Virus record (IMG/VR): IMGVR_UViG_3300047552_001147
Location: 1 to 64,000 of that record
DNA: 64,000 nt
Strand: one strand, 5' to 3'
From: a virus
Position 1 is the stretch's first letter; each line of letters begins with the position of its first letter. The notes beneath the pieces were generated by a model that was given only the letters and a program-made list of their open reading frames with translations, did not search any database and was not told the origin of the DNA. Shown piece by piece: positions 18,388-55,731 of this stretch. The position numbers and the translations under genes were made by a program.

Positions 18388-18735
18388 ATGTTCACTGAAT
18401 CACTTTTTGATGAGTTAGAGAAGATCGCCGAGAGCCGAAGTGATCACAACGATCGCCGGATGTTCTCATCTCTAGGCAACGTCATTCTCCCTCCTTTTGG
18501 TTCAATCATGGCGGCCAAAGGTAAGAAGACGCGCAGCCTATTAGGTAGCTTAGGCGGCGGCGTTGTTGGCGCTGGCCTAGGTGGAGCAGCTGGCGCTGGA
18601 CTAGGCGCACTAACTGGCGGCCCTGCTGGGGCAGTTCTTGGCGGCATGTCAGGACTAAGTGTTGGCGGCCCAGTTGGCAGCGGCGTTGGATCATATCTAG
18701 CACACGGTAAGTACAAAGGTAAGAAGGAAGACTGA
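18388..18735 (+). CDS. FFDELEKLA-tagged glycine-zipper protein
   Basis: 115 residues. The N-terminus MFTESLFDELEKIAE is the tag shared by fifteen proteins in this window. Residues ~50-105 are extremely Gly/Ala-rich with GxxxG spacing (GAGLGGAAGAGLGALTGG), a glycine-zipper pattern typical of membrane-inserting helical hairpins. The tail is basic (KYKGKKED). The stop overlaps the next start (TGATG). I infer a minor virion component able to enter a membrane; the tag may direct packaging. Confidence 0.6.
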   Translation: MFTESLFDELEKIAESRSDHNDRRMFSSLGNVILPPFGSIMAAKGKKTRSLLGSLGGGVVGAGLGGAAGAGLGALTGGPAGAVLGGMSGLSVGGPVGSGVGSYLAHGKYKGKKED

Positions 18736-19004
18736 TGTTCACCGAAGCCCTATTTGATGAGTTACAAAAGCTGGCTGTCCGTATTGTCTATACGAAGCCA
18801 CAGACTAATGTACTCAATCCAATAGAGCACGGCGGCTCACTTCTGAGAGCAAACAAGAACGGCCTCTATCATCCTAAGAGTAATCCAAAGGGTGAGCCGG
18901 GTGTTTCGGCTGGTGCATTGAAGAACTACAAGGATGCTAGGGCGGCGAATAATCCACGCATGGAGGGTGAAATCGCCCGCATGCGTTATGGGATCAAACT
19001 CTAA
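18735..19004 (+). CDS. FFDELEKLA-tagged small basic protein
   Basis: 89 residues. The tag is MFTEALFDELQKLA. The rest is basic, Asn/Gly-rich and mostly without clear domains (SNPKGEPGVSAGALKNYKDARAANN). The start overlaps the previous stop. A terminator follows at 19007. The role is unknown beyond the shared tag. Confidence 0.6.
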   Translation: MFTEALFDELQKLAVRIVYTKPQTNVLNPIEHGGSLLRANKNGLYHPKSNPKGEPGVSAGALKNYKDARAANNPRMEGEIARMRYGIKL

Positions 19005-19006
19005 CT

Positions 19007-19039
19007 AAAAGAACAGTCCATTGCTGGATTGTTCTTTTT
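19007..19039. terminator. Bidirectional intrinsic terminator
   Basis: AAAAGAACAGTCCA TTGC TGGATTGTTCTTTT forms a stem whose arms end in A4 and T5, serving both the plus gene before it and the minus gene after it. Confidence 0.8.
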
Positions 19040-19041
19040 GA

Positions 19042-19461
19042 TTACTGTGTATTCCGGTGGCTGCGCGTCAGCACGTCCACAAGCATACACAGGAACATTT
19101 CCCCATGTTTACGCGTCTCAGGCGTATCGAAGATGATAGCTGAGAGCGCCATTTGCTTGGCCACACCCAGCGTTTTGGCATCCCATGAGGCAATCGTATC
19201 GTAGTGCCTCTGAAGGATATCCTTCGGCTCCTTGGCTGTGAAAAACAAGGATGCGAAGCTCTCACGAGACTGAGGCTTATCACTGCCTTCCAGTACGTGA
19301 TTGATATCCAGCACAACCCTGTCCGTGTTATCGAACAGTTCACTAAGCTGCTGCTCCTTCACCTCATCGCTCAATTCATTATTGAATACGATGTGATTGA
19401 CAGCATACGTTGCTTCGGTCAGCAGGATTGCCTGGATGACACTGCTGTCTCTGATTGTCAT
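19042..19461 (-). CDS. Hypothetical helical protein, one of a paralogous pair
   Basis: 139 residues, all helical. It has the same length as the protein at 19647-20066 and shares the order VVLD-I-xx-V, RESFASLF and KTLGVAKQMALSA. The pair brackets a membrane microprotein in one minus-strand cassette driven from 20100. No known family; no catalytic residues stand out. Confidence 0.55.
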   Translation of the reverse strand: MTIRDSSVIQAILLTEATYAVNHIVFNNELSDEVKEQQLSELFDNTDRVVLDINHVLEGSDKPQSRESFASLFFTAKEPKDILQRHYDTIASWDAKTLGVAKQMALSAIIFDTPETRKHGEMFLCMLVDVLTRSHRNTQ

Positions 19462-19494
19462 GTGGGATCCTTTTAGTGGACTAGCTCGAAGCCG

Positions 19495-19629
19495 TCAGTG
19501 GATACTGATCCCGAACATCTTGAATGTGAGTATGGCTGTCACGAGTATAGTGAAAAACAGCGTGGCCATGAAGACGATAAGTCCAATCGCTTCGATGATG
19601 CGACGCTGGTACGATTTCAGAAGATCCAT
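19495..19629 (-). CDS. Single-transmembrane microprotein (44 aa)
   Basis: ATG at 19629 is preceded by AAAGGAAC. The protein starts MDLLKSYQRRIIEAIG and continues with a ~24-residue hydrophobic helix (LIVFMATLFFTILVTAILTF). It is too short for common gene-calling cutoffs, but it lies neatly between two coupled genes on the same strand. Other single-TM microproteins of similar form occur at 24234, 38235 and 62018. Confidence 0.6.
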   Translation of the reverse strand: MDLLKSYQRRIIEAIGLIVFMATLFFTILVTAILTFKMFGISIH

Positions 19630-19646
19630 AGCGGTTCCTTTGCTCC

Positions 19647-20066
19647 TTAGTTGAGGGCGGCGGCCTGTTCGGTGATCTTGCCGATCTCCGCATGGATGGT
19701 GGCGGCCAACAGCATGTTGGCGGTTGAGTCGTCATTCACCTCGGCGATGATGGCGAGACGCTTCATCAGTCGGAGACGGTTCGGGTCGAATTTGTTGATC
19801 AATTCGAACATCTGTCTCGCGACATCAGCGGGACCGAGATCCGTGTCGGGGAAGGTTTGGCGGAATGACTTGATCGACTCCTCGGATGTACATTGATCCG
19901 CTATGAACGAATCAAGATCGAGGACGATGTCGTCCGGGTTCTGTGCCAGCCGCTTGAGTTCCACGACAACCTCGTCGTCGGTGTGCGTCTTGGTGTAGTT
20001 GAGGAGGTGGGTCGTGACGATGGCGCCGAGGAATACGTGGACCAGGTGGGTGTTTGTGGGCTTCAT
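19647..20066 (-). CDS. Hypothetical helical protein, paralogue of 19042 gene
   Basis: 139 residues. It shares IVLDLDSFI, EESIKSFRQTF and RLRLMKRLAIIAEV with the neighbour, by position and spacing. An AAGGAGC site lies before the ATG, which is 34 bases from the CATAAGA box. Base composition is more GC-rich than in adjacent plus-strand genes. The function is unknown. Confidence 0.55.
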   Translation of the reverse strand: MKPTNTHLVHVFLGAIVTTHLLNYTKTHTDDEVVVELKRLAQNPDDIVLDLDSFIADQCTSEESIKSFRQTFPDTDLGPADVARQMFELINKFDPNRLRLMKRLAIIAEVNDDSTANMLLAATIHAEIGKITEQAAALN

Positions 20067-20099
20067 GTTTTGCTCCTTGGTTAGTTGGACCTGTCATAG

Positions 20100-20106
20100 T
20101 CTTATG
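20100..20106 (-). promoter_or_regulatory. CATAAGA promoter box (minus)
   Basis: Minus strand reads GCGTCATAAGACTA. A TCAAAAAG tract lies about 16 bases upstream of the box. Confidence 0.6.
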
Positions 20107-20125
20107 ACGCGCCCGCTGTTGCTTT

Positions 20126-20154
20126 TTGAAGAAATCACGCTACTCTTTTAGTAG
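20126..20154 (+). promoter_or_regulatory. Sigma-70-like promoter for 20175 gene
   Basis: TTGAAG, a 17-base spacer and TAGTAG. The block TTGCTTTTTGAAGAAATCAC is nearly the same as the one before the 17361 gene. Confidence 0.35.
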
Positions 20155-20174
20155 TCCTTCACTGAGAATAGTAC

Positions 20175-20675
20175 ATGTTCACAGAATCGTTTTTTGATGA
20201 GTTGGAGAAGATCGCGCTAACACTAAGAGGCGCGGTAGCTAGTGGCACAGCAAGATCAGCTGCCGGACACTCTCTGTTTAGACCAACTGGCCAATCCTCA
20301 GGATACGCTACACGTGCGAACCTGGCGAATGTTGGTAGACAGGACGTAGCCAAACGTAACATCCCTCCGATTGAGGAGCGGGCTAAGGTGCCTAGCCATC
20401 AGCTATCTCGCAACCAGATTGGGCAAGCTTTCCACGCTAAGAAGAGCTTTGAGAGCCCTAACACATTCAAAGGTTTCACTCCTGCTACTACCTCAGGTGC
20501 TAAGCCGTTAAATTCTGGAGCAAAGGCTGACTTGAAATCACGGCTTGTCGGCTCATACAGAGATAGACATGGAATTGGTCCGCACGTATCGGACCAAAAC
20601 GTTACAGGCAGGATGCTGAATAACAACGAGCTCGCTCGCCGCCGCACTGCCAGAGCAATGTTCAAAGGAAAGTAG
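20175..20675 (+). CDS. FFDELEKLA-tagged basic protein (166 aa)
   Basis: The tag is MFTESFFDELEKIA. The remainder is basic, Ser/Arg/Asn-rich and low in hydrophobics (ARSAAGHSLFRPTGQSSG, RRRTARAMFKGK), which suggests a disordered or DNA-binding virion component. Three bases separate the stop from the next tagged gene. The function is unknown. Confidence 0.6.
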   Translation: MFTESFFDELEKIALTLRGAVASGTARSAAGHSLFRPTGQSSGYATRANLANVGRQDVAKRNIPPIEERAKVPSHQLSRNQIGQAFHAKKSFESPNTFKGFTPATTSGAKPLNSGAKADLKSRLVGSYRDRHGIGPHVSDQNVTGRMLNNNELARRRTARAMFKGK

Positions 20676-20678
20676 CAC

Positions 20679-21071
20679 ATGTTCACTCAAGCCCTTTTTG
20701 ATGAGCTAGACAAGCTCGCTGCTGTCGGTGTCCCTAAGCTTCTAAAGACTACAGCGTCACCATTCGGCAAGCGCTCTCGCGGCACTATCTCAAATCTTGT
20801 CCGCAAAGGTAAGAAGGGGTTCAAGCTACCGCTGCTGAAGACAGCCGAAGAGACTGTTGAATCACTTTTCGGCGGCAAGGGCGATGGTAAAGATGACGAC
20901 GACTTCGACCGAAAAGAGCTATCTAAGGGTAAGAAGGTCGAGCGTGAGCATACCAAGAGCAAGAAGAAGGCTGGGGAAATCGCCCGCGATCACCTGACTG
21001 AAGATAAGAAGTACTACTCAAAGCTCCACAAAGCTGGGCTAGCAGATGAGCTAAAAGCAAAGCCTATATGA
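20679..21071 (+). CDS. FFDELEKLA-tagged Lys-rich protein (130 aa)
   Basis: The tag is MFTQALFDELDKLA. The body is very Lys-rich (RKGKKGFK, SKGKKVEREHTKSKKKAG) with an acidic patch (GKGDGKDDDDFDRKE). High positive charge fits a DNA-associated internal protein. It converges with the minus-strand GLHAS cassette 14 bases after its stop, with no clear terminator between them. Confidence 0.6.
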   Translation: MFTQALFDELDKLAAVGVPKLLKTTASPFGKRSRGTISNLVRKGKKGFKLPLLKTAEETVESLFGGKGDGKDDDDFDRKELSKGKKVEREHTKSKKKAGEIARDHLTEDKKYYSKLHKAGLADELKAKPI

Positions 21072-21084
21072 CTTTGCTGTAACG

Positions 21085-21636
21085 TTAGACTGGCGGAAGC
21101 TCAACAGCCAGTTCAGGGTAGCGGATGCGGATCTGCTCCAGCAACCACTTCTCTTGCTCCATCTTTGCTTGTCGGAATAGAATGGATTTCGCGTCAAGCG
21201 GTTGAGAACGGGTGGCGCTGTGTGAAGCGCACAGATCAGACGATCTCCTCACGTAAAGTAGGAATTCGTCACAATACGCATTTTTGTAATGATATGCAGC
21301 ACGCGTATGTTCGTTATCAGGACCGAATTCGTCGGTAAAGTCCAGTAGTAGCCGCCCTATGTCGGCTGTTCCAAGAACCTGTCGTTCGGTACAAACGAAC
21401 TTGTCGTCATCGCGACTGATGCTGCCTGCGCAGCGTACACGCCGCAGAATTACTCCTGGGGCGTGCATAATAGCATCAATTAGGCGCTCACTTGCGTGAA
21501 GCCCTGAGCGACACAACAGTATCGCTCCGTGGTGTGTTTCGGTCTCAAAAGCTTCTTTCGCTTGACGAGGTTCGGACCAGTTGTAACTGGCCATCTTGCC
21601 ACGTTCAGCGATGAAGTGCCAACCTAGTACGGCCAT
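21085..21636 (-). CDS. GLHAS-family protein, paralogue 3
   Basis: 183 residues from ATG 21636 (MAVLGWHFIAE), overlapping the upstream gene. It carries LGWHFI at the start, ILLCRSGLHASERLIDAIMHAPG near residue 45 and LRRVRCAGSISRDDDKFVCTERQVL after it. The same blocks in the same order occur in the two genes upstream. The layout recalls a common phage family with a 'C-x-x-G-[FL]-H-A-[CS]' motif (DUF7666-like in my reading) of unknown function. Confidence 0.6.
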   Translation of the reverse strand: MAVLGWHFIAERGKMASYNWSEPRQAKEAFETETHHGAILLCRSGLHASERLIDAIMHAPGVILRRVRCAGSISRDDDKFVCTERQVLGTADIGRLLLDFTDEFGPDNEHTRAAYHYKNAYCDEFLLYVRRSSDLCASHSATRSQPLDAKSILFRQAKMEQEKWLLEQIRIRYPELAVELPPV

Positions 21637-22229
21637 TCGATCCCTTCTCCTTTCCGAACAAAGAGGTGTTGGTAGGTTTTGCTGAGTAGCCATTCGTTGG
21701 CGTAGCGACTCATTTGATCACGAACTGCTCTGTTGCCACCCGCATAAGCGTCCAGGCAATTTACGGCGTAACGTGCTATGAGCAAGAGAGACTTGTTGTA
21801 CCATAGCTCACTTCCCAGCGGTTCTTTTTGAAATTCTGGTCTATTGTTGAACCACTGCTTCAACTCAATAACCCGATTTTTCGGGCTATTCCAGAAGAAC
21901 GACGGTGTTCTTTCCTCGTATCTCACCTTATCAGTGACATACGAGGCGAACTCCTCCAAGATCTTGGTGAAGTCCAGCGTGTGTACGATCTCTCGACGAG
22001 AGCACACAAGCTTGTCGCGTTCGGTAATGGCGTTGAACACCTTGACCAGCCGCAGAGTTGTGCCGGGGGCGTAAGCGACGGCATCAATCAGACGAACACT
22101 TGCGTGTAGACCTTTCTCACATATGATGAGTTCACCATCGTATGTTTCAGCTTCACCGTCTGCGGCGGCTTTTGATCCATCCCTCAGTAAGCCGGTGCTG
22201 GTGATGAAGTGCCAGGCGTAATCAGACAT
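21624..22229 (-). CDS. GLHAS-family protein, paralogue 2
   Basis: 201 residues from ATG 22229 (MSDYAWHFITS), which overlaps the upstream stop by 8 bases; a longer open frame to 22325 is unlikely. It has YAWHFI, ICEKGLHASVRLIDAVAYAPG and LRLVKVFNAITERDKLVCSRREIV. The C-terminal half has diverged from its paralogues, so only the ~110-residue N-terminal domain is conserved. No enzymatic motif is known for the family. Confidence 0.6.
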   Translation of the reverse strand: MSDYAWHFITSTGLLRDGSKAAADGEAETYDGELIICEKGLHASVRLIDAVAYAPGTTLRLVKVFNAITERDKLVCSRREIVHTLDFTKILEEFASYVTDKVRYEERTPSFFWNSPKNRVIELKQWFNNRPEFQKEPLGSELWYNKSLLLIARYAVNCLDAYAGGNRAVRDQMSRYANEWLLSKTYQHLFVRKGEGIEWPY

Positions 22230-22836
22230 ACACACCTTCCTTCTTGGCCTTGGCGATGACCGCCTTTTTGATGTAGTTGATGTGCCACCGGATGGTGGAG
22301 GTCGTGCAGACGTCATTGCCAGCACATGCCTGTATGGCCTCGACTGTTTCCGTCCAGTCGGGATACCACATCTCGTTGTTGGTACGGTCTGCTTTATTGT
22401 AAGCAGCCATAACCTGACGTTTGGTAGCCTTGCCCTTACGCCAGCGTTTTGCGACTCGGTACAGGTCGCCGAAAGGCTTGCTCAGCTTGCAGCCATCCTT
22501 TCTCTGCAATTTGATGAGACGATCCACTTCCATGAACAGGACATTGTTGAGGATGTCCTCGATGTTGATGGTGTAGAGGATCTTCCGCTCGGTGCAGACG
22601 AGCTTGTCATCACTTTCGACGACGTATCCGCTGCACTGTACGCGGCGAAGATACGGTCCTTTGTGGTACCTCGAGGCGTCCTCCAGTTTCCTGGACGCAT
22701 GTAGCCCGTAGTTGCACAAAGACACGTGAAGCCCGAGGTGCTTCTCGACGCCGGGGGCCTGCTTGGCTGGCCCGCCATTGTGGCTGAGCTTACGGCGGTT
22801 GCCGATCAAGTGCCAGGCAAGAATTGATTTGGTCAT
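22222..22836 (-). CDS. GLHAS-family protein, paralogue 1
   Basis: 204 residues from ATG 22836 (MTKSILAWHLIG), with AGGAGGACC upstream. It has LAWHLI, LCNYGLHASRKLEDASRYHKG and LRRVQCSGYVVESDDKLVCTERKIL. The basic C-terminal half (KRWRKGKATKRQVMAAYNKADR) differs from the other two copies and may bind nucleic acid. It is the first gene after the CATAAGA box at 22867. Confidence 0.6.
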   Translation of the reverse strand: MTKSILAWHLIGNRRKLSHNGGPAKQAPGVEKHLGLHVSLCNYGLHASRKLEDASRYHKGPYLRRVQCSGYVVESDDKLVCTERKILYTINIEDILNNVLFMEVDRLIKLQRKDGCKLSKPFGDLYRVAKRWRKGKATKRQVMAAYNKADRTNNEMWYPDWTETVEAIQACAGNDVCTTSTIRWHINYIKKAVIAKAKKEGVYV

Positions 22837-22866
22837 TGGTCCTCCTTTGTGACCTTGGTTCAATCA

Positions 22867-22873
22867 TCTTATG
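22867..22873 (-). promoter_or_regulatory. CATAAGA promoter box (minus)
   Basis: Minus strand reads GTGGCATAAGATGA, 31 bases before the start at 22836. A GAAAAT tract lies about 16 bases upstream of the box. Confidence 0.6.
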
Positions 22874-22939
22874 CCACACTCGGGGCGCATTTTCATCACT
22901 TTGCGTTAGAATTAGAAGGTGAGTACACTCGGAGAACAC

Positions 22940-23176
22940 ATGAGCTTTCAGAACGCCTTTTTTGATGAATTGACGAAGATCGCCGGCGATGACAAGTACA
23001 TCAAGCGGAAGCCTATGCAAGGCCCATCAGGGTTCACGCCCGGCTCAGTACTGGAACAAGAGCGTTCATTCAGAAGAATGAGCCGCCCAGTATCCTCAGG
23101 AAGAGCTGTTGGCAGTCTGAGCCAGCCGACTAGCGCTAGTGCGCGTAGGCCAGCTCCTAAATTGGTGCCTAGATAA
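22940..23176 (+). CDS. FFDELEKLA-tagged basic small protein (78 aa)
   Basis: ATG 22940 is chosen because it has CGGAG upstream and because MSFQNAFFDELTKIAG then matches its paralogues; an in-frame GTG lies at 22919. The rest is basic and Ser/Pro-rich (RPVSSGRAVGSLSQ, ARRPAPKLVPR), probably disordered. Confidence 0.6.
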   Translation: MSFQNAFFDELTKIAGDDKYIKRKPMQGPSGFTPGSVLEQERSFRRMSRPVSSGRAVGSLSQPTSASARRPAPKLVPR

Positions 23177-23184
23177 CACAGCCG

Positions 23185-24207
23185 ATGTCGTTCCAATCTA
23201 CGTTTTTTGATGAGTTGGAGAAGCAAGCTGTAATAGGTACCGCTATTACGGGGGCAGCGGCCCATCTAGGGATGAACGCCGCTGTTAAAGCCATTGGAAC
23301 TAAAAGAACAGGGCTGGCTGGTAAGCTGCTGAACCCGGCGCATAATTGGGTGCACAAGAAGAAAACTGAGGGGATGGCTGAAGGCATCCGCCGAGGATTG
23401 AAAGGTGAGAGCCCGCTGACCACTAAGGGGAAGATCACGCGATCTTGGGGCGTTCCTGAGCTAACGGCGGGGGCCGAACCTGGCCACAAGATTGGTGATG
23501 AGTTAGCCACTATACGGCCATCCCACAGATACCGCAGACTTCGTAAAATGCGCCAGGCGATGCTCAAGAGTGATCATGCCAAGCATGCGCCTATTGGTGA
23601 GAACGCCGTTGGCGCCATCACAAAGACTTTAGCGGATAAGGACGCTATGCGCTCACCCCGCAGGAGTCGGCCCGGACACACTAAGAAAGATGTCGCCGGT
23701 CATATTGGTGCTGTCGCAGCAGGACTACCCACCATACCGCTTACAGCAGGTAAGTCAGCTATCCACGGTGCGCTGAATGTCGCGAGAGTTGGTACAGCGA
23801 AATCAAAGGTTGGGCGCGACTTCGCGGCTAAGGGATTCAAGGAAGGCTTGAAGGGTAAACTACCGAGCAAAGGTAAGCAGCGCTTCTATGACTACGCTGT
23901 CTCGCCTTCAGCTCTAGATAGCCACCGGCTTGGCCACGCTGTTAGTAAAGAGACGCCGGCTAACCAGCTAAGATTGGCTCACTCATACGGTCGTGTTACA
24001 CCACACAGCACTAAAGTGCAATCTAGATCAATCGCCTCTAAGGTTCACTCGTTAGCGCACAAGACGCCGATTGAGCAAGCACGTCTAAAGAGCAAGGCTG
24101 AGAAAGCGCTCTCTGAAGTTCCGTCAAAAGTGAAGAACAAGTTCAAGGAATACGGCGGCAAGATGCTTGAGAAGAAGCTAAGCCACTTCCAGAACAAGAA
24201 AGACTAA
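23185..24207 (+). CDS. FFDELEKLA-tagged large basic protein (340 aa)
   Basis: The tag is MSFQSTFFDELEKQA, followed by a short hydrophobic Ala/Gly segment (VIGTAITGAAAHLGMNAAV) and a long basic region rich in Lys, His and Arg (RPSHRYRRLRKMRQAML, SPRRSRPGHTKKD, KAEKALSEVPSKVKNKFKEY). It is the longest of the tagged proteins. Charge and size would suit an internal head protein or DNA-binding ejection protein; that is inference. A hairpin follows the stop. Confidence 0.6.
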   Translation: MSFQSTFFDELEKQAVIGTAITGAAAHLGMNAAVKAIGTKRTGLAGKLLNPAHNWVHKKKTEGMAEGIRRGLKGESPLTTKGKITRSWGVPELTAGAEPGHKIGDELATIRPSHRYRRLRKMRQAMLKSDHAKHAPIGENAVGAITKTLADKDAMRSPRRSRPGHTKKDVAGHIGAVAAGLPTIPLTAGKSAIHGALNVARVGTAKSKVGRDFAAKGFKEGLKGKLPSKGKQRFYDYAVSPSALDSHRLGHAVSKETPANQLRLAHSYGRVTPHSTKVQSRSIASKVHSLAHKTPIEQARLKSKAEKALSEVPSKVKNKFKEYGGKMLEKKLSHFQNKKD

Positions 24208-24229
24208 AATACTGGTTGAACCAGTATTC
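24208..24229. terminator. Hairpin terminator between convergent genes
   Basis: AATACTGGT and ACCAGTATT form a 9-bp stem with a 3-base loop directly after the plus stop and just beyond the minus microprotein. The T-runs are short, so it is weaker than others here. Confidence 0.55.
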
Positions 24230-24233
24230 TACG

Positions 24234-24356
24234 TCATTGCACCATATCGTACAAATGAGTCAGAACAAAATACACGATGAACCACATGGCGGCGATTGCT
24301 ACAACAGGTGCCACAATCTCCCGCCAAATGTGCTTCAGCTTTTCTAGAGTGTTCAT
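24234..24356 (-). CDS. Single-transmembrane microprotein (40 aa)
   Basis: AGAAGGAGATAAC lies before the ATG at 24356, a near-ideal ribosome site. The protein begins MNTLEKLKHIWREIVAP and has a hydrophobic helix VVAIAAMWFIVYFVLTHLY. It has its own CATAAGA box 18 bases upstream and a hairpin after the stop, so it is a complete single-gene transcription unit within a late region. Function unknown; membrane location inferred. Confidence 0.7.
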   Translation of the reverse strand: MNTLEKLKHIWREIVAPVVAIAAMWFIVYFVLTHLYDMVQ

Positions 24357-24373
24357 GTTATCTCCTTCTAGTA

Positions 24374-24380
24374 TCTTATG
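24374..24380 (-). promoter_or_regulatory. CATAAGA promoter box (minus)
   Basis: Minus strand reads CAGTCATAAGATAC, directly before the microprotein gene. A plus-strand ATG inside the box (24378) is a false start for the next plus gene. Confidence 0.65.
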
Positions 24381-24410
24381 ACTGATTATACCCTGAAAAT
24401 GGAAGCACAC

Positions 24411-24671
24411 GTGACATTCGAGAGAGCACTGATCTCAGAGCTAACTAAGCTCGCTATGGCAGCGAGCAATGCGGCGGATTACTGGGCCAATAAGGACGCC
24501 GCCGGCTTATCCAACAAACAACTACAGCCGGCTCACCGCAATCTGGATTATCTAGGTAAGCGGCCTAAGCCCAGGCAGTTAGACTTACCGTTCCCCAAGA
24601 AGCGGCCTATCCCACCAGCTGGGCCGGCGAAACAAGAGTTCGATTACATCAAGCGGAGACAGGGCCGCTAA
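24411..24671 (+). CDS. FFDELEKLA-variant tagged small protein (86 aa)
   Basis: GTG 24411 is preferred because it has GGAAG upstream and because MTFERALISELTKLAM then aligns with the other tagged proteins; an ATG at 24378 lies inside the minus promoter. The tag is degenerate here (ALISELTKLA for FFDELEKLA). The rest is basic and Pro-rich (LGKRPKPRQLDLPFPKKRP). The stop overlaps the next ATG (TAATG). Confidence 0.55.
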   Translation: MTFERALISELTKLAMAASNAADYWANKDAAGLSNKQLQPAHRNLDYLGKRPKPRQLDLPFPKKRPIPPAGPAKQEFDYIKRRQGR

Positions 24672-25237
24672 TGCCTTTCAAATCAAAAGCACAGCAGCGG
24701 TTTATGTTCGCGGCGGAATCCCAGGGTAAGCTAAAACCTGGGACCGCGCGGAAGTGGGCACACGAGACCAAAGATATGAAGAAACTACCTGAGCACGTTA
24801 AGAAGGCAGCGTTCGCGGACGCTGTTTTTGATGAGCTTGAGAAGTTGGCTGACCTACGGTTCGGCGATCCGAAGCATCCGGTAACAAGCTTGGGTATCTT
24901 CCTCCACGCTGACGAGGGGAAAGAGCGAAAGGTGCACAAGGAGTGGATGGACCTATTCTCGAAACATAGGTCACCAATCAAAGCACTCTCGGCGTACACA
25001 AAGCGTCACCCGAATACGTTTACTACCGCACTAATCAAGCACGAGGCGCCTCCGGGACTACTGTCCTTCAAGCAGAAGGCGCTGTACGCGGATAAGGTCA
25101 AAAATCCGCGCCTGTTCGTGAGAATTGGTCCAGCCGGATCACACTCGCAACACGCTATGTACCAAGAGGCCATGCGCGGTCTCTACGACGATGAGTTGCA
25201 CCACGCACCTAAGGATCAGCGACATGTTTACGGCTAA
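24671..25237 (+). CDS. SKAQQRFMFA-domain protein with internal FDELEKLA motif
   Basis: 188 residues. The first ~45 (PFKSKAQQRFMFA ... KWAHETKDMKKLPEHVKK) match a short module seen in many phage proteins (SKAQxRxMFA ... K-x-LPE-xVKK). Immediately after it comes AAFADAVFDELEKLAD at residues ~46-61, the tag that is N-terminal elsewhere. The remainder (~125 residues) is a basic helical domain. This is a fusion of the two modules in one protein. Role unknown. Confidence 0.6.
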   Translation: MPFKSKAQQRFMFAAESQGKLKPGTARKWAHETKDMKKLPEHVKKAAFADAVFDELEKLADLRFGDPKHPVTSLGIFLHADEGKERKVHKEWMDLFSKHRSPIKALSAYTKRHPNTFTTALIKHEAPPGLLSFKQKALYADKVKNPRLFVRIGPAGSHSQHAMYQEAMRGLYDDELHHAPKDQRHVYG

Positions 25238-25499
25238 CTTCCAACAGGCATTCTTTGACGAGCTTGAGAAGCTCGCGTTCGTAGATCCGGCCACAATCAC
25301 CGCCGCGTCTACAGGCACACTCGCGGTACTAGGTCTTGGTAGTAAGTCTATCAAGACTGGTAAGTCGCTGTACAAGAAGTACAAGAGCTGGCGTAAGAAA
25401 GAGAAGAAGATGAAGCGCGGCAAGCTCAAGGAGTTCAGTAAGGCAATGCTGAGAGCGCCGGTTACCGTAGCTAATGAGGCGTCGGAGCATTTCGGATGA
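25224..25499 (+). CDS. FFDELEKLA-tagged protein with hydrophobic segment (91 aa)
   Basis: ATG 25224 overlaps the preceding gene by 14 bases. The tag FQQAFFDELEKLAF lies at residues 6-19. Next is a mildly hydrophobic Ala/Thr/Gly stretch (TITAASTGTLAVLGLG), then a strongly basic region (YKKYKSWRKKEKKMKRGK). That pattern would suit a membrane-proximal, nucleic-acid-binding virion protein. The function is unknown. Confidence 0.6.
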   Translation: MFTANFQQAFFDELEKLAFVDPATITAASTGTLAVLGLGSKSIKTGKSLYKKYKSWRKKEKKMKRGKLKEFSKAMLRAPVTVANEASEHFG

Positions 25500-25762
25500 G
25501 ATTCCAACAAGCACTATTTGACGAACTTGAGAAACTGGCCATTATGGCTGGTGGTAGCACACCTTCCGGACCATCTCCACGCACACCGTCACCTAGAGAG
25601 GTTAAGCTGATTAATAGCAACGCGGTTAACTTGCTGAAAGAGAAATTATCAACAGGTGACCACGGCACAGTTCATGGAATGTTCCCGAAATCTAAAGCAC
25701 GGCAGGACGGTATGCGTTGGCACCCACAAAACAGACTTAAAGGTCTGTTAGGTGATAAATGA
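25496..25762 (+). CDS. FFDELEKLA-tagged small protein (88 aa)
   Basis: The tag is MRFQQALFDELEKLAIM. The body is polar, with a Pro/Ser-rich linker (GGSTPSGPSPRTPSPRE) followed by a basic end (KSKARQDGMRWHPQNRLKG). Start and stop both overlap neighbours by 4 bases (ATGA), so translation is coupled along this chain. Confidence 0.6.
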   Translation: MRFQQALFDELEKLAIMAGGSTPSGPSPRTPSPREVKLINSNAVNLLKEKLSTGDHGTVHGMFPKSKARQDGMRWHPQNRLKGLLGDK

Positions 25763-26022
25763 CTTTCCGCCAGGCCTTTTTTGATGAATTAGATAAGCAA
25801 GCTGCCTCGTGGACGGAACACGTGGGTGTGGCTGCTGAGGCAGCTGATGCTATTCGGCACTCTGGCGCTATCGGTGCAGCGAAACAGTACATCAAATCGT
25901 CTGGTGGCGTAATACCGGCGGCGAGGATTGCAGGCTCAATAGCATTGCAGGGAGCAGGTAAGGCTGCTAGAAGAGTTGGTCTGCTACCGCCCCAGCGTAG
26001 ACCTAAGATGGTGAAAGTCTGA
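25759..26022 (+). CDS. FFDELEKLA-tagged small protein (87 aa)
   Basis: The tag is MTFRQAFFDELDKQAAS. It is followed by Ala-rich amphipathic helices (VAAEAADAIRHSGAIGAAKQYI) and a basic tail (KAARRVGLLPPQRRPKMVKV). The start overlaps the preceding stop. Confidence 0.6.
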   Translation: MTFRQAFFDELDKQAASWTEHVGVAAEAADAIRHSGAIGAAKQYIKSSGGVIPAARIAGSIALQGAGKAARRVGLLPPQRRPKMVKV

Positions 26023-26026
26023 GTAA

Positions 26027-26635
26027 ATGATCGAGCAAATCTTCAAATCTAAACACATCCTGCCCCAAGCCTATAAGCTTGTGCTGGATCAGACCATGCC
26101 TGAGGGGTGGGCGACTTGGGAGCCGGAAGCCCTGTGGGATGAGATCCAGCGTGTCCACGGAGTGCGACCTATCGAGGAAGTAGCGAACAAGATCAACGCG
26201 ATCAAGACGCTGCTGACTACCGAGCTCTATTACATGGACGCGACCGTATTTGAGAACATGATACTGGCCGCGAACGATTTGATGGTTCAGCCATCATCTT
26301 TCCAGATGTGCTCACCAGAGGAACTGGTGTACGGTATTAGGGCCTTCCGCCCCATTGAAAACCGCCCCCAGTCTTGGGGTAAAGAGATCCGGGCGTATGT
26401 TGACGCCTGCTGCCAGTTCTACGGGCTTTTGAAATATCCAGCTGAGCTAGAATTTGCACAGCCGCAATATGATGGTGAGCTGGCGAACCTGGCCAAACAG
26501 ATCACAATTAGGTATACTGATCCGAAAACACTGGATCAGAAGGACGTGGTGGCTGTTCAAGGTAACAAGCTCTACCATATCGCTGAGTATTGCGCAGTTA
26601 AGCTAGGTATGATGAGTGAGGAGAGCTTGAAATGA
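26027..26635 (+). CDS. Hypothetical protein without the tag (202 aa)
   Basis: A soluble, acidic, mostly helical protein embedded in the chain of tagged genes but lacking the tag. It contains Trp and Tyr clusters (PEGWATWEPEALWDEI) and repeated helices. It may be a structural or tail-completion protein, but no family was recognised. The stop overlaps the next tagged gene (ATGA). Confidence 0.5.
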   Translation: MIEQIFKSKHILPQAYKLVLDQTMPEGWATWEPEALWDEIQRVHGVRPIEEVANKINAIKTLLTTELYYMDATVFENMILAANDLMVQPSSFQMCSPEELVYGIRAFRPIENRPQSWGKEIRAYVDACCQFYGLLKYPAELEFAQPQYDGELANLAKQITIRYTDPKTLDQKDVVAVQGNKLYHIAEYCAVKLGMMSEESLK

Positions 26636-27030
26636 CGTTTTCTGATAGCTTGCTAGACGAGCTAAACAAACTGGCATATGACTACGGCTACGAGGCCCGC
26701 CGGTCAGAAGACCGTCATCGTTACAACCAACACACCAAGCCGCCCAAGTGGAAACACGCCCTATTGACGGGCGTAGTTATTGGTGCGGGACTGGGTGGTA
26801 TCCTAGCTAGCAAAGGTAAGCGGATGAGGGGTGCTGGTATCGGTGCAGCCGGTGGTGCTGTTGCTGGTGCTGTGTACAAAGGTCTACGCCACGTGTCTAT
26901 TGCTGATAGCAAGCATGTGATGTCTATGCCGAAGAACCGCCGCCGCGATCTACTAAAGCATCGCTCAAGAGCACACGAACGCGCATACGACGACATCAAC
27001 CAGGAACTCCTAAACAGGATGGGTCGTTAA
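26632..27030 (+). CDS. FFDELEKLA-tagged glycine-zipper protein (132 aa)
   Basis: The tag is MTFSDSLLDELNKLAYD. Residues ~43-85 form a hydrophobic Gly/Ala-rich hairpin (LLTGVVIGAGLGGILASKG, GAGIGAAGGAVAGAVYKG) with GxxxG spacing, like the tagged protein at 18388. The flanks are basic and Arg/His-rich. It is likely to insert in a membrane; a role in genome ejection is speculative. Confidence 0.6.
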   Translation: MTFSDSLLDELNKLAYDYGYEARRSEDRHRYNQHTKPPKWKHALLTGVVIGAGLGGILASKGKRMRGAGIGAAGGAVAGAVYKGLRHVSIADSKHVMSMPKNRRRDLLKHRSRAHERAYDDINQELLNRMGR

Positions 27031-27031
27031 C

Positions 27032-27307
27032 ATGTTTCTAGAATCTTTCTTCGACGAGCTTGAGAAGCTCGGAGCCAAGTTTAACCCTAAACCGACGGTC
27101 GCCCACAAAGCACCTATTGGGCCAGCGGAGCCAACGGCAAATGCATACAAAAGAGGCTTCCAAGAGGCAGGGCGTCGTGTGCATAGCAACATGCAAAAAG
27201 GTCGCGGCACTCCCAAACAACCGTGGTATAAGAGCCCCGCTGCAATGATCGGTGGCGGTCTAGCTGGCGGATACGCGCTGTCTAGACTGACAAATAGGGA
27301 CGAGTGA
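27032..27307 (+). CDS. FFDELEKLA-tagged small protein (91 aa)
   Basis: The tag is MFLESFFDELEKLGAK, with Gly replacing the final Ala. A basic middle leads to a short C-terminal Gly/Ala hydrophobic stretch (AAMIGGGLAGGYALSRL). The stop overlaps the next ATG (TGATG). Confidence 0.6.
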   Translation: MFLESFFDELEKLGAKFNPKPTVAHKAPIGPAEPTANAYKRGFQEAGRRVHSNMQKGRGTPKQPWYKSPAAMIGGGLAGGYALSRLTNRDE

Positions 27308-27588
27308 TGTTCGCGGCAGCATTCTTCGACGAGCTAGAAAAGCTAGCCACCAACATCCTCACTAACAGTGTTGATGTGGTTAAGAAGCGCTGGAAAGAGG
27401 ATGTGGAAAAGCCGCGTCCTCCTGTTGTCAAGACAGCGATGCTTAATCCTGTCACATCTGCGTTGATGAAGAACAGCACTCCTGCCCAAGCATATCGCGG
27501 TATCCGTTCCGGCGTTAAAGCACTCGGTGGTGGAACATCCCGCATCGGCGGCGTCAGCGCACCTAAGCCCGCTACATTCAAGCTATGA
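27307..27588 (+). CDS. FFDELEKLA-tagged small protein (93 aa)
   Basis: ATG 27307 is chosen over the adjacent GTG. The tag is MFAAAFFDELEKLATN. The rest is basic (VVKKRWKEDVEKPRPPVVK) with no recognised domain. The stop overlaps the start of the fibre gene by 4 bases, tying the tag chain to the fibre genes in one operon. Confidence 0.6.
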   Translation: MFAAAFFDELEKLATNILTNSVDVVKKRWKEDVEKPRPPVVKTAMLNPVTSALMKNSTPAQAYRGIRSGVKALGGGTSRIGGVSAPKPATFKL

Positions 27589-29714
27589 GCAAACAAGTTA
27601 ATCGCCGCCGTGGTTCATCTGATCAGCACGCCGAATTTGTCGGCTCGGCTGGCGAATTAACTGTTGATACCACAAAGAACACTGTGGTTGTGCACGATGG
27701 CCAGACTCCTGGCGGCCATCCACTAGCTAAAGAATCAGAAGCTATTGTTCCTGCGCAGCAATTCATCCTACACGCTGGTGACTTATCTGAGTACATGAAG
27801 CGTGTGCCGATGATTGGTGCACGTCAGCCGAGAGAACTCGTAACAGCTACAGGTCTGTGGTATGGTGGACATACGACACACGGCGACTGGTCTGGTACGC
27901 TGCAAGAACGCAAAGACGGGACATTTGGCAGTGGCGGACCAGCAGAGCTAGACTACGCGCCTAGCGGGCAGTACACGCTGTTTAACTGTGGTAGAATGCC
28001 AGCAGATGGCTCGCCTCGCGGCTTCTTCACAGAAGGCGGACTGCCTTCACCTGACGTTGGCGCCACATACGGCGTCGCTGTTCGTAGAGCATTCGCTAGA
28101 CGCGCTAACTTCACTGGCGCAACCTGGTCACCCGCTAGCTTAACGCTCACGCTCGTGTCTTCACCAGCATACACGTTCACAGGAAATGACTGGATCGCGC
28201 TGCACTGCCTAACCAACCTAACTGATCAGCAGGTAATCGACAACGATGTCTGCACCGGTTGGTATCGCCCTGCGTCCTACAACAGTGCAACGAAGAAGGT
28301 AGTGCTGACAGCGGATGAAGAACTGAACGGCCCTACCTTCTGCCCTAACACACTAGCGGCAAAAGTTGACGGCACGTTGTTCCAGGCTAATGACTGCACG
28401 TACTACACTGGCGTAGCTTACAGCCCCGCTGGCTCACTGCGTAAGGCTGGCGCGAACTTCCCGTCTCCCGGTCCTGACGATACCGTTGAGATGGCCTTCG
28501 ATGATGGCACGTACAACTACGCCAAAATCCTAGGTAGAGTGTCGCCGGCCGAGCTGACAGTAAGTGATGAGATTGACGGCACCTTCACCGGCAATATGAG
28601 GCTGTTCACGCGCGGCTCATTCGAGAAGGTCGGTGTAATCAGTTGGACTGGCGCCAATGCCACCAACCACTGGGCCGATGCTGGTAGTCCTAGATACCAG
28701 GTGATGCACATCACGACATCGCCGCTCTCGTCCAGCCCTAAGTGGGGAGATCAGTACTTCGTCTACTACACTGGTGGCGTATCACCGCACCCCGACTCGC
28801 ACCCCGAGGATATCCCCACTAGAACAGCTGATTACACGCTCGCTAGCTGGTGGCCGTACTTCTCAGCGGTCAAATCGTCGCACACTAGTGGTAAGTCTGT
28901 CAGCGGCAACGGTAACAACCCCGCTGCTGAAGTCGGAAGTGATATGAGCCACTACTGGTGGGGTACTTTCTGCGTACCGCGCAGCACCTTCCTCAACGGA
29001 TCAATCATCGACGTAACTACAGTGATGGATGTGACGTACTTCGGTACGCCGTTCTTCATTGAAGTCCTTGTGATCCCGAACTTCGATCCCGAGGCGGATT
29101 GGATCAAGGACCACACCAGCGTCGGCAACAAGCTGCGCCTTAGCAACGATATGATCTACATGTTCCAGTCCTCGATTTTACGTGGAGTGGAGCAGCAGCA
29201 GACTATCGCGCCGATGTGGATCCGCCTAACAGGACAGGCCGGATACATCCAGACTATCGGCGTGCAGCAAGGGCTTAACCCAGGACCAGGTGATAACTCC
29301 TCACAACAGTGGCGCTGTGAGTTCCTTCTTGGTCCTCCGGGAAGTGATGGTGCTGAAGAATCACACTTCGACCGCTTCCCGAGTACTAAAGGTCCGCTGT
29401 CTCATATTCAGGAACTAGATGAAACAGCGGCGACAGACTTCACCAATGATGATGTAATGTACACCGTCCTCATCAAGTCTGAGCACGCATCTCTTTATGG
29501 ATACCCCGGCTACCACGGCCATTACAGCGGCGAACCGTACTCATGCACAACCGGAAACGGTGGCGTGTTGTTGCATCACCCAGGTAACCTGACTACTGCT
29601 GTTTACTCAGCAGGATCTCCGGCACCATTTAGTAGAGCGCTTCTATCACTGCCGTGGGGAGCCCGATTCCGTGTAGGAACCTTTAGAGCCGAGTGGCGTC
29701 CAGGCGGAGAATAA
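27585..29714 (+). CDS. Tail fibre protein (709 aa)
   Basis: Residues ~7-50 (RRRGSSDQHAEFVGSAGE, then TVDTTKNTVVVHDGQTPGG) match a short repeat at the N-terminus of many phage tail fibres and tropism proteins, with the consensus E-x-T-v-D-t-x-x-x-x-v-v-HDG-x-x-x-GG. The rest is beta-rich with many Gly, Thr and Trp and probably forms the receptor-contact part. It is followed by an esterase-like and a propeller gene, forming a host-recognition module. Confidence 0.7.
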   Translation: MSKQVNRRRGSSDQHAEFVGSAGELTVDTTKNTVVVHDGQTPGGHPLAKESEAIVPAQQFILHAGDLSEYMKRVPMIGARQPRELVTATGLWYGGHTTHGDWSGTLQERKDGTFGSGGPAELDYAPSGQYTLFNCGRMPADGSPRGFFTEGGLPSPDVGATYGVAVRRAFARRANFTGATWSPASLTLTLVSSPAYTFTGNDWIALHCLTNLTDQQVIDNDVCTGWYRPASYNSATKKVVLTADEELNGPTFCPNTLAAKVDGTLFQANDCTYYTGVAYSPAGSLRKAGANFPSPGPDDTVEMAFDDGTYNYAKILGRVSPAELTVSDEIDGTFTGNMRLFTRGSFEKVGVISWTGANATNHWADAGSPRYQVMHITTSPLSSSPKWGDQYFVYYTGGVSPHPDSHPEDIPTRTADYTLASWWPYFSAVKSSHTSGKSVSGNGNNPAAEVGSDMSHYWWGTFCVPRSTFLNGSIIDVTTVMDVTYFGTPFFIEVLVIPNFDPEADWIKDHTSVGNKLRLSNDMIYMFQSSILRGVEQQQTIAPMWIRLTGQAGYIQTIGVQQGLNPGPGDNSSQQWRCEFLLGPPGSDGAEESHFDRFPSTKGPLSHIQELDETAATDFTNDDVMYTVLIKSEHASLYGYPGYHGHYSGEPYSCTTGNGGVLLHHPGNLTTAVYSAGSPAPFSRALLSLPWGARFRVGTFRAEWRPGGE

Positions 29715-35421: not shown

Positions 35422-35940
35422 CTATTTTGCCTTCTTAGCTACGATCTTCTGGTAGTTTTCCCAGCCGACTTCCTTGGCTGTGAAGCAGTGCTTGATGACA
35501 GCCTCGAACATGGTCGCCGACGCGCGCTTGCCAGAAGCACGATCGATCCACTCAAGGAACTCTTCCGCAGCCACATTCTCGGCGCGGATCTTACCTTTCT
35601 TCTCTTCATCAGCCGTGAAGATCGGATCAGCATCCGGGTGACCTTCTAGCCACTCCAAACCCTTTGCGAACATGTTGCGGCAGGTCTGCTCATATGCTCC
35701 GCCGTATCCTGAGATCTCGTCCATCTCTGGTGTGAAGACGTATTTGGTTCTGACCTGCTGGACATCAGGAATATCCACACTCAAGTCAGGACCATATACG
35801 TCATCAGCATCCATGACAATCTTCTTGACGCATGTCAAGCATGTCGGGATAGACTCTCCCTTCACTACAGCTGTGACACCATCAATACCTTCCACGAAAG
35901 ACTTACCGCAATCACAGACTTGGTTTCTTACTCCTGACAC
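35422..35940 (-). CDS. Hypothetical protein with N-terminal Cys metal site (172 aa)
   Basis: VCDCGKSF near residue 9 and TCLTC near residue 34 suggest a zinc ribbon. The rest is helical and acidic, with a Lys-rich end. The start overlaps the upstream deoxyribosyltransferase-like gene by 13 bases. No family was recognised. Confidence 0.55.
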   Translation of the reverse strand: MSGVRNQVCDCGKSFVEGIDGVTAVVKGESIPTCLTCVKKIVMDADDVYGPDLSVDIPDVQQVRTKYVFTPEMDEISGYGGAYEQTCRNMFAKGLEWLEGHPDADPIFTADEEKKGKIRAENVAAEEFLEWIDRASGKRASATMFEAVIKHCFTAKEVGWENYQKIVAKKAK

Positions 35941-36404
35941 TGTCTTCTTATCTCCTCGATTAGTTCTGCTAGTGAGTTAACCTGTCGGGCGCCGAAGAAT
36001 TCAGCAGTGATGTCCACGTTGCCCTTCTTCCAGAATCCTTCTGGGCAACATAGTATAACACTGCTAGACTTGCGAGCGAGTGTAATGCCGAGCTCCATCA
36101 TCGAGATTGGCGATGTTGTGGCAGGATCGAAGTAGAACGCGACGATATCTGCTTGCTCTGCCAGGTGGGTAAGCTCCCAAGTGACCTGCTCTACGAATCG
36201 CTTATCTGTCCTATCCTGCCGCCAAGATGAGTCCCAATCCGGTCTTCTAGGATTGAAGATCATCAGGCCAGCAACATCAGCAAGAGCAGCAACTACTTTA
36301 GATTGCCACGGCTCTGCGTTGCCCATAGCAATGCTGCCAGCGAGGAATAGTGTCTTTTTGGCCTTCCACCACTCTGCGTAGTGCGGGGCAGTAACTTCTT
36401 TCAT
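35928..36404 (-). CDS. Nucleoside 2-deoxyribosyltransferase-like protein
   Basis: 158 residues. KTLFLAGSIAM is the first strand and substrate loop of the family (consensus hYLAGP). MIFNPRRPDWD is the next loop. DIVAFYFDPATTSPISMMELGITLA carries the catalytic Glu in the (S)PxxxxELG context. These enzymes cut or exchange N-glycosidic bonds of nucleosides or nucleotides. In a phage this may support nucleotide salvage or remove a nucleotide signal. Which nucleoside it uses cannot be read from sequence. Confidence 0.75.
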   Translation of the reverse strand: MKEVTAPHYAEWWKAKKTLFLAGSIAMGNAEPWQSKVVAALADVAGLMIFNPRRPDWDSSWRQDRTDKRFVEQVTWELTHLAEQADIVAFYFDPATTSPISMMELGITLARKSSSVILCCPEGFWKKGNVDITAEFFGARQVNSLAELIEEIRRQCQE

Positions 36405-54284: not shown

Positions 54285-55730
54285 CTACAATCCGCTCCGC
54301 ACGCGGTCACGGATCTCCGCGTACGTCTGCTCGTTGTGGAGCTGGCCGTTCGAGAACACCTTGCGGAACGCGCAGCTTGTCACGTCAGTCTTCTTCGCGT
54401 TCTGCTTCAACGTGAAACGACCGTTCTGATCGTGATAGACGGCCAAGAGGCCCTTGGCGGACTTCTTGGTACCGTTATCAGTCACAGGATTCTTGAAGAT
54501 CTCACGCGCCTCATTGCCGACTTCGACGTAGGTGGCCTTCATCGCCCAACCGAGAGTGTCTCTCGTGTTGTACTGGTAGGTGTAGCTACCGATTCCGGCC
54601 ACCCAGTTGGTCGACGCGAACCCCTGCTGCATCAGTCGCTCGCAGATAGCCGCCGCCAGCTCTCTGGTGATAGAGTCACCGTAGATCAGGCCGATGTGGG
54701 GATCGAGGACCTTGAATCCCTTGCTGTTCGTAGTGCCTCCGAAGAGTTCCCACAGCAGCTGGATTGAGCCCTTCTTCTCCACTTCGGTTTCCCCGTCAGG
54801 ATCGCCACAGATGATCTCCAGAGGAGTCTTCTTGGAGCTGTCTGGACGGATGACGACCTTGCCCGCACGGGCCATGATCTCCGACTTGAGCGTCGGAAGG
54901 ATCTCGGTCAAAACCTTCCAGTAGTCCCAGGTGTCCGAGACGATGGACACGATCCCCTTGGGGTACAGATCGAGGATGCGGCGGAACGTGTCCACCTCAG
55001 ACTCTCTCGTACCTGCACACATGACACTGTGTTCCGTCGCCGGAACAGAGAATCCTGTGATCCCTCTCGGAGCATGGTAGTACTTCGAGAGGAATGAGGT
55101 GGCCGGAACAGTGTCAGAGCCGTCGAAGGACAGGAGATGTCCCGCCCCGCTGGTCTTGGCCGTTTCGAGCGAGCTCATTCCACGGAAACTGAAGTCGTGC
55201 CCCTGGAAGTTGACGGACGCAGCTTCATCAGAGGTCATGTCAGCGTATCTGGTGAAGATCTGCCGATAGTGTCTTGCGATGGTTGCTGATGTGCACGGCT
55301 GCCAGATCGTAGCCGACATGATGGTTTCCAGGTAGTTGACCAACCAGAAAGCATCAGGTACCGTGTTCATCATGACAAGCGAGGGAACGCCGGCAGGAAC
55401 CACCGAACCTTCCGGCAACGCCCAGATCTCGATCGGCAGGCCTGAGTGTCTTCCCAGCAGCCGGAGGTGATAGTCGTTCGGTCTTACCCCGAGAGCTGCC
55501 TCCATCATATCCGCAAAATCGCCGATGTTCATTCGCTCCAAGAACGGGACCAGGTACTCCTTCAGGAAGTACTGCAGTCCGAAGAACACCACCGCTTCCT
55601 CGCCGGTAGGGTCCTTGATGCGACACTTCCGGGGAGTAAAGTTGGAGAACACCAACTTGGTGCCATCCGGGTATTGCCGACGGTGGTCGGCCTTGTACCA
55701 GTCAATCAGATTCAGTGAGTTGTCAGTCAC
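54285..55730 (-). CDS. nadV: Nicotinamide phosphoribosyltransferase-family enzyme
   Basis: 481 residues from GTG 55730, one base after the previous stop; a longer frame to 55838 only reads into that gene. Family motifs: LIDWYKADHRRQYPDG at the start (YKxxHxxQYP), ATEHSVMC with catalytic His, VIRPDSSKKTPLEIICGDPDG, GLIYGDS, and AGIGSYTYQYNTRDTLGWAMKATYVEV. NAMPT/NadV makes NMN from nicotinamide and PRPP. With the PRPP-synthetase-like gene in front it forms an NAD-regeneration pair. It may instead be the NARP1-type transferase (nicotinamide plus ADP-ribose pyrophosphate to NAD). Confidence 0.85.
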   Translation of the reverse strand: MTDNSLNLIDWYKADHRRQYPDGTKLVFSNFTPRKCRIKDPTGEEAVVFFGLQYFLKEYLVPFLERMNIGDFADMMEAALGVRPNDYHLRLLGRHSGLPIEIWALPEGSVVPAGVPSLVMMNTVPDAFWLVNYLETIMSATIWQPCTSATIARHYRQIFTRYADMTSDEAASVNFQGHDFSFRGMSSLETAKTSGAGHLLSFDGSDTVPATSFLSKYYHAPRGITGFSVPATEHSVMCAGTRESEVDTFRRILDLYPKGIVSIVSDTWDYWKVLTEILPTLKSEIMARAGKVVIRPDSSKKTPLEIICGDPDGETEVEKKGSIQLLWELFGGTTNSKGFKVLDPHIGLIYGDSITRELAAAICERLMQQGFASTNWVAGIGSYTYQYNTRDTLGWAMKATYVEVGNEAREIFKNPVTDNGTKKSAKGLLAVYHDQNGRFTLKQNAKKTDVTSCAFRKVFSNGQLHNEQTYAEIRDRVRSGL

Positions 55731-55731
55731 G

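What the first reader, a model, noticed from the sequence alone, without database searches (positions are those of the whole stretch)
21085..22836. Three tandem GLHAS-family paralogues
The same ~110-residue block, [LY]xWHxI ... C-x-x-GLHAS-x-[RK]LxDA ... LRxV ... DKxVCxER, occurs three times in overlapping genes with divergent C-terminal halves. Tandem duplication with tail divergence is what arms-race genes or multi-target inhibitors show.
Basis: seen in the sequence. Interest (0 to 1): 0.5.

Follow-up and report, generated by a model that had tools for sequence, protein, structure and literature searches.

The report
Three tandem phage DUF7666 ART-fold genes
A newly seen phage carries three overlapping sister genes of a family of unknown function, and predicted structures suggest that their shared front half is folded like enzymes that move ADP-ribose from NAD+ onto other molecules, so they may be small weapons or shields in the phage-host contest.

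Summary
In detail: three overlapping minus-strand genes (21085-21636, 21624-22229, 22222-22836) share an N-terminal domain of about 95 residues and have C-terminal halves with no detectable similarity. The domain is Pfam DUF7666 (PF24703), of unknown function, not named in the paper library searched. Relatives are mostly in phage contigs, 74 of 88 tails Ala-rich; the trio lacks such tails. Two AlphaFold models of different copies point to the ADP-ribosyltransferase (ART) fold: for the domain-only model all 50 listed rows are ART-fold (38 of them human PARP entries, 12 others: Tpt1/KptA, Arr, DUF2441, an Rhs toxin; best Z 7.4); for the other, 14 of 14 rows on that domain. No sequence or profile method finds the link, and Foldseek alone is not significant. 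One relative is already annotated as a putative ADP-ribosyltransferase in print. Best reading: NAD+- or ADP-ribose-acting phage proteins with diverged tails; activity and targets unproven. Local triplication is not shown. The phage also has NARP1-like NAD+-rebuilding genes.

The parts
22222..22836 (-). Copy 3, 204 aa, first gene of the array; DUF7666 domain about residues 5-98, diverged tail
   Evidence: Pfam PF24703 27.4 bits, cut-off 27; 28.5 bits; domain-only model m511c422231b9, mean pLDDT 85.6
21624..22229 (-). Copy 2, 201 aa; DUF7666 domain about residues 4-93, then a predicted helical tail
   Evidence: PF24703 25.0 bits, just under the cut-off of 27; 25.9 bits; model m6f69fbcdd192, mean pLDDT 83.1, blocks of 85-97 over residues 1-100
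21085..21636 (-). Copy 1, 183 aa; last gene of the array (the first-listed longer frame starts at 21693)
   Evidence: PF24703 26.7 bits, 28.1 bits; start by Shine-Dalgarno-like GGAAAGGAG
22203..22217 (-). First strand of copy 2 with the conserved Trp-His (residues 5-9, AWHFI)
   Evidence: translation; strand 4-9 in the model; His 94 of 98 in the family alignment
22098..22112 (-). GLHAS of copy 2 (residues 40-44), predicted second core strand
   Evidence: translation; strand 41-44 in the model; Gly 98 of 98, His 97 of 98 in the family alignment

Best explanation
The three genes look like one short operon of small phage proteins whose N-terminal DUF7666 domain has the ADP-ribosyltransferase (ART) fold, with a first-strand histidine (WH), a second-strand histidine (GLHAS) and a hydrophobic residue in the later strand that follows the conserved Asp-Lys, the layout called H-H-h in Tpt1/KptA-type ARTs. 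Most likely they bind NAD+ and transfer ADP-ribose to, or otherwise act on, host molecules or immune nucleotides during infection, with the diverged tails giving each copy its own target. Shown: genes, family, diverged tails, mostly viral distribution. Predicted: the fold. Inferred: operon, catalysis, targets, timing.
For: All three match DUF7666 at or near its cut-off. Model of copy 2: of the 50 rows listed, all 14 that align from residue 1 or 2 are ART-fold entries: 1wfx (Tpt1) Z 6.5, rmsd 3.2 over 78; Arr 6.3, 5.7 and 5.2; TreTu 5.2; PARP16 4.2; RCD1 4.0 and others (that 6yhn, CNFy domain 4, and TreTu/TreX are ART-like is recalled). Domain-only model of copy 3: 50 of 50 listed rows (of 124 chains with Z 2 or more) are ART-fold by title, recall or, for 2aua, by test; 38 are human PARP or tankyrase entries, 12 are Tpt1/KptA, Arr, 2aua and TreX; best 2aua Z 7.4, rmsd 2.9 over 81. 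2aua is a DUF2441 protein by sequence and DUF2441 is in Pfam's ART clan (passage of PMC7955679). Most of Foldseek's own top 50 for this model are other folds and none of those is among VIA's 50 rows. Two histidines and a hydrophobic residue fit the H-H-h description in PMC7955679: His 94 of 98, His 97 of 98. A relative (phage fLi-Aba02 gp30c) is annotated putative ADP-ribosyltransferase. The same phage encodes a Namat-like and a Prs-like enzyme, as in NARP1, which rebuilds NAD+.
Against: No sequence-level link to any ART: hmmsearch of PDB chains finds none; profile comparison with KptA, DUF952 and RES is no better than column shuffles (8, 6 and 19 of 40 shuffles as high). Foldseek gives no PDB match at E 0.001 or below for either model, and the tool warns that Z under 8 may be a common arrangement. 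Many of the 50 rows are the same few PARPs. The first-strand His is Lys in 9 of 9 more distant relatives examined, the Thr of the Tpt1 HGT motif is absent, and no catalytic Glu is evident. Site geometry was not measured. Both models use alignments of the same 95 relatives, so they are not fully independent, and no control model was run.
Confidence: 0.5

Rival explanations
1. ART fold without catalysis: the domain binds ADP-ribose-type nucleotides (a sponge or sensor for immune signals) and the tails bind partners.
For: The first-strand residue is Lys in 9 of 9 distant relatives while GxH stays; no evident Glu; phages use proteins that sequester ADP-ribose-type immune signals (search listing with start of abstract only, PMC12043709 and PMC13232231).
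Against: In the window's own subfamily both histidines are nearly invariant (94 and 97 of 98), which suggests a preserved site rather than a decayed one.
Confidence: 0.25
2. Toxin of a toxin-antitoxin or superinfection-exclusion module, as proposed for the Acinetobacter phages.
For: Badawy et al. [quoted passage not shown]
Against: No recurrent partner gene: among 755 neighbour ORFs in 89 distinct loci the largest real neighbour family occurs in 5 loci; a 17-locus cluster looks like antisense ORFs opposite the repeat tails (0 of 18 on the gene's strand) and was set aside.
Confidence: 0.1
3. The fold match is a coincidence of a small alpha/beta domain, and the proteins are binding adaptors or minor virion proteins with no NAD+ link.
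For: Z values of 4-7, no Foldseek E-value under 0.001, no profile match.
Against: Several separate ART families head both lists, and among the listed rows no other fold aligns to the domain alone.
Confidence: 0.15

Closest known systems
Pfam DUF7666 (PF24703)
   Same: All three copies match its model (25.0-27.4 bits, 25.9-28.5) and align with 95 relatives over the domain
   Different: Relatives usually carry Ala-rich, Asn-Thr-Gly-like or Gly-Tyr-Asp repeats; 74 of 88 tails have at least 30% Ala in the last 90 residues, the window copies 7-12%
Tpt1/KptA RNA 2'-phosphotransferase
   Same: Among the top structural matches (1wfx Z 6.5 and 5.6; several other Tpt1 entries about 5.5); two histidines and a hydrophobic residue in a similar layout
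   Different: No N-terminal RNA lobe, no HGT motif (WHF or WHL instead), no significant profile match
Arr rifampin ADP-ribosyltransferase
   Same: Small single-domain ART; Z 6.3 and 6.1 to 9iaf
   Different: Not found by the sequence profile search of PDB chains
fLi-Aba02 gp30c, 'putative ADP-ribosyltransferase' (Acinetobacter phage)
   Same: A distant relative with the GFHAC motif, reached through a related Vibrio phage protein
   Different: Has a long ATGDNSASS-type repeat and Lys in place of the first His; its length differs between sister phages (195, 291, 345 aa; table passage)

Membership tests
DUF7666 (PF24703) | Score over the curated cut-off | tested here: met
   Copies 1 and 3 over it (28.1, 28.5); copy 3 also (27.4), copy 1 just under there (26.7). 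Copy 2 just under in both (25.0, 25.9) but a clear homologue of the other two
DUF7666 (PF24703) | Conserved GxH and Asp-Lys motifs (as seen in the alignment made here) | tested here: met
   GLHAS and DK in all three; family counts G 98/98, H 97/98, D 92/97, K 95/97
ART superfamily | Split beta-sheet ART fold | tested here: met
   By predicted models only: 50 of 50 listed rows and 14 of 14 domain rows; but Z under 8 and no Foldseek E under 0.001
ART superfamily | Active-site triad (H-H-h, H-Y-[EDQ] or R-S-E) | tested here: inconclusive
   Two histidines and a hydrophobic residue in plausible strands of the window subfamily, but Lys for the first His in 9 of 9 distant relatives; geometry not measured
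ART superfamily | Recognisable sequence profile of a known ART family | tested here: inconclusive
   No signal against KptA, DUF952, RES or PDB chains
ART superfamily | NAD+-dependent transfer or hydrolysis | not testable with these tools
   needs biochemistry
Tpt1/KptA | N-terminal RNA lobe and HGT motif | tested here: not met
   The protein starts at the first core strand and reads WHF or WHL; lobe and motif from PMC6333775 passages
Toxin-antitoxin module | Conserved adjacent antitoxin gene | tested here: not met
   Largest real neighbour family in 5 of 89 distinct loci

The most novel reading that the evidence does not exclude
DUF7666 is an unrecognised, phage-centred clade of H-H-h-type ADP-ribosyltransferases; this phage fields three with different target-choosing tails and pays for, or is protected against, the NAD+ drain with its own NARP1 pathway.
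Probability: 0.25. Interest if true: 0.7.

Novelty: new member of a known kind. Interest (0 to 1): 0.45.

Why it matters
DUF7666 is found in many phages and in some giant-virus proteins, yet Pfam still calls it a domain of unknown function. Placing it in the ART fold turns an unknown phage family into a directly testable NAD+/ADP-ribose hypothesis, in a field where NAD+ is a contested resource between phages and bacterial defences.

Tried and rejected
Sequence routes to a function failed: PHROGs (best E 0.15), NCBIfam (one 12.8-bit match with a cut-off of 138), PADLOC (nothing for the trio), PDB sequences (best a dynein light chain, E 0.14). hhalign against KptA, DUF952 and RES was no better than shuffles. 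The KptA alignment, which paired GLHAS with HVHLS, was not significant and was not reproduced, so it is not used. Arr gave one locus only (1 of 150 genomes), too few for a profile.

Synteny with close relatives: none found; the terminase finds 8 viral contigs with best-segment identities of 23-24%. Selection analysis therefore not done. Promoter-like sites: 0 found; terminator-like sites: 3, shuffles 2.4. Neighbour genes: no conserved partner.

I first suspected the fold from the WH..GLHAS..DAxxYA pattern (noted) and then tested it; other folds were not excluded one by one. In one search the rows aligned to residues 86 onward (the helical tail) were not counted; one row (8etq, 53-165) spans both parts and is not an ART. 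Three of the 14 counted rows extend beyond the domain (to 161, 162 and 185). The weak link of copy 3's tail to family tails depends on which relatives are used.

One search kept 80 of 100 confirmed loci. Distribution in bacteria: 1 of 150 Pseudomonadota genomes, and that one was the centre chosen because it has the domain.

Full report
What is there. The window is bases 1-64000 of a 94,506-base virus record. On its minus strand three genes overlap end to start: copy 3 (22222-22836), copy 2 (21624-22229) and copy 1 (21085-21636), each with a Shine-Dalgarno-like site. They lie among plus-strand genes. The N-terminal halves are clearly homologous (0 of 500 shuffles as high for each pair), the C-terminal halves not detectably so.

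Family. All three match Pfam DUF7666 at or near its cut-off of 27 bits (25.0-27.4; 25.9-28.5). A full-text search of the paper library finds no paper with the name DUF7666. In annotated phages a more distant branch matches in 177 records, 115 of them Rheinheimera phages. In 150 Pseudomonadota genomes only the seed genome has it. The family is therefore mainly viral in what was searched. In most relatives the domain is followed by low-complexity repeats, Ala-rich in the window's branch (74 of 88 tails) and often NTG- or ATGDNSASS-like in the distant branch, or is preceded by Gly-Tyr-Asp runs. The trio has none of these.

History. Multi-copy contigs are common. In a tree of 98 domains the copies of each of 7 other multi-copy contigs fall on one side of a branch when held against the rows of the other groups (ungrouped rows may lie inside, as L075 does with L068 and L005 with L004), whereas the three window copies group in 0% of 200 bootstrap trees. 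But their branches are very long, only 101 columns were used, and the AU test does not reject one clade (p 0.178). Either they are an old, fast-diverging triplication or they came in separately; the data do not decide.

Fold. A model of copy 2 with 98 aligned sequences has mean pLDDT 83.1, blocks of 85-97 over residues 1-100. Re-aligned PDB candidates: the 14 listed rows that align from residue 1 or 2 are all ART-fold entries, from Tpt1 (1wfx, Z 6.5) and Arr (6.3) to PARP16 and RCD1 (CNFy domain 4 and TreTu counted as ART-like from recall). A separate domain-only model of copy 3 (pLDDT 85.6) gives 50 of 50 listed rows in the ART fold, with 69-87 of 100 residues aligned; 38 of the 50 are human PARP or tankyrase entries, so the number of separate families matters more than the count. 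Its best row, 2aua (Z 7.4), is titled 'unknown function'; two DUF2441 proteins match it at E 1.4e-8 and 2.2e-9, and PMC7955679 lists DUF2441 in Pfam's ART clan (passage). Foldseek alone gave no PDB hit at E 0.001 or below; its viral library returns DUF7666 proteins and giant-virus ankyrin proteins.

Active site. [quoted passage not shown] In the window's subfamily His is found at the first-strand site in 94 of 98 and at the GLHAS site in 97 of 98 rows; a mostly hydrophobic position follows the Asp-Lys pair, and an Arg is present in 97 of 97. In 9 of 9 distant relatives the first His is Lys while GxH is kept. The site is thus suggestive, not proven, and may be changed or lost outside this subfamily.

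Against. No sequence-based method links DUF7666 to an ART, and Z values below 8 are, by the tool's own note, not decisive. The case rests on several separate ART families heading both lists with no other fold on the domain alone among the listed rows.

Context. One relative, gp30c of Acinetobacter phage fLi-Aba02, is annotated 'putative ADP-ribosyltransferase' and suggested as one half of a toxin-antitoxin pair; passages only were read (PMC7354433). So the ART idea is in print for a relative, as an annotation, and in the passages seen no test of activity is mentioned. Recurrent neighbours that would mark a toxin-antitoxin module are absent (5 of 89 loci at most). Of 9 annotated regions viewed, 4 place the gene in or near lysogeny or early genes (after antitermination protein N in Salmonella phage S107; near CI and excisionase, a repressor, or an integrase in three others), which would fit early expression; the other 5 do not show this. 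A survey of viral NAD+ systems (PMC9503650; passages and two sections read) describes many phage ARTs; DUF7666 is not named in what I read.

NAD+ setting. The same phage encodes a NAMPT-family protein whose best solved matches are 9W5W and 9W5X (E about 1e-147), which PMC12774641 identifies as Namat of NARP1 (passage), and next to it a Prs-like protein. NARP1 rebuilds NAD+ from the products of NAD+ depletion (abstract). Whether this serves the trio or only defends against NAD+-depleting immunity is unknown.

Verdict. Real, correctly described: a diverged three-gene array of a known but functionless family, with a structural case for an ADP-ribosyltransferase-like domain. Arms-race and multi-target readings are plausible and untested.

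Noticed in passing
window 18403-27350, + strand: Thirteen matches, all at or near protein N-termini on the + strand, to a tag like F..[AS][FL]FDELEKLA on otherwise different small proteins; 0 in the rest of the record; trinucleotide-shuffled windows give a mean of 0.04, at most 1. Possibly a virion-targeting or head-protease signal.
   Followed up: partly
window 54285-56592, - strand: NARP1-like pair: Namat-like NAMPT-family protein (closest solved structures 9W5W/9W5X) and Prs-like protein
   Followed up: partly
window 19042-19461 and 19647-20066, - strand: A second pair of minus-strand paralogues in the same plus-strand region (28% over 79 residues, E 3e-6; no Pfam match)
   Followed up: partly
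window 27585-29714, + strand: 709-aa protein starting with a Major tropism determinant N-terminal domain (Mtd_N, 45 bits; PHROG tail protein)
   Followed up: no
window 35928-36404, - strand: Nucleoside 2-deoxyribosyltransferase-like protein (109.6 bits)
   Followed up: no
L170 960-15064 and L169 14897-15730 (rest of the phage record): Replication and expression genes: DNA polymerase A, RecA-like, helicase, RuvC, Toprim, thymidylate kinase-like and a sigma-70-like factor
   Followed up: no
L159 5959-6996: Repeat tail of a DUF7666-like protein; in the sister phages fEg-Aba01, fLi-Aba03 and fLi-Aba02 the protein is 195, 291 and 345 aa, which looks like repeat-number variation
   Followed up: no
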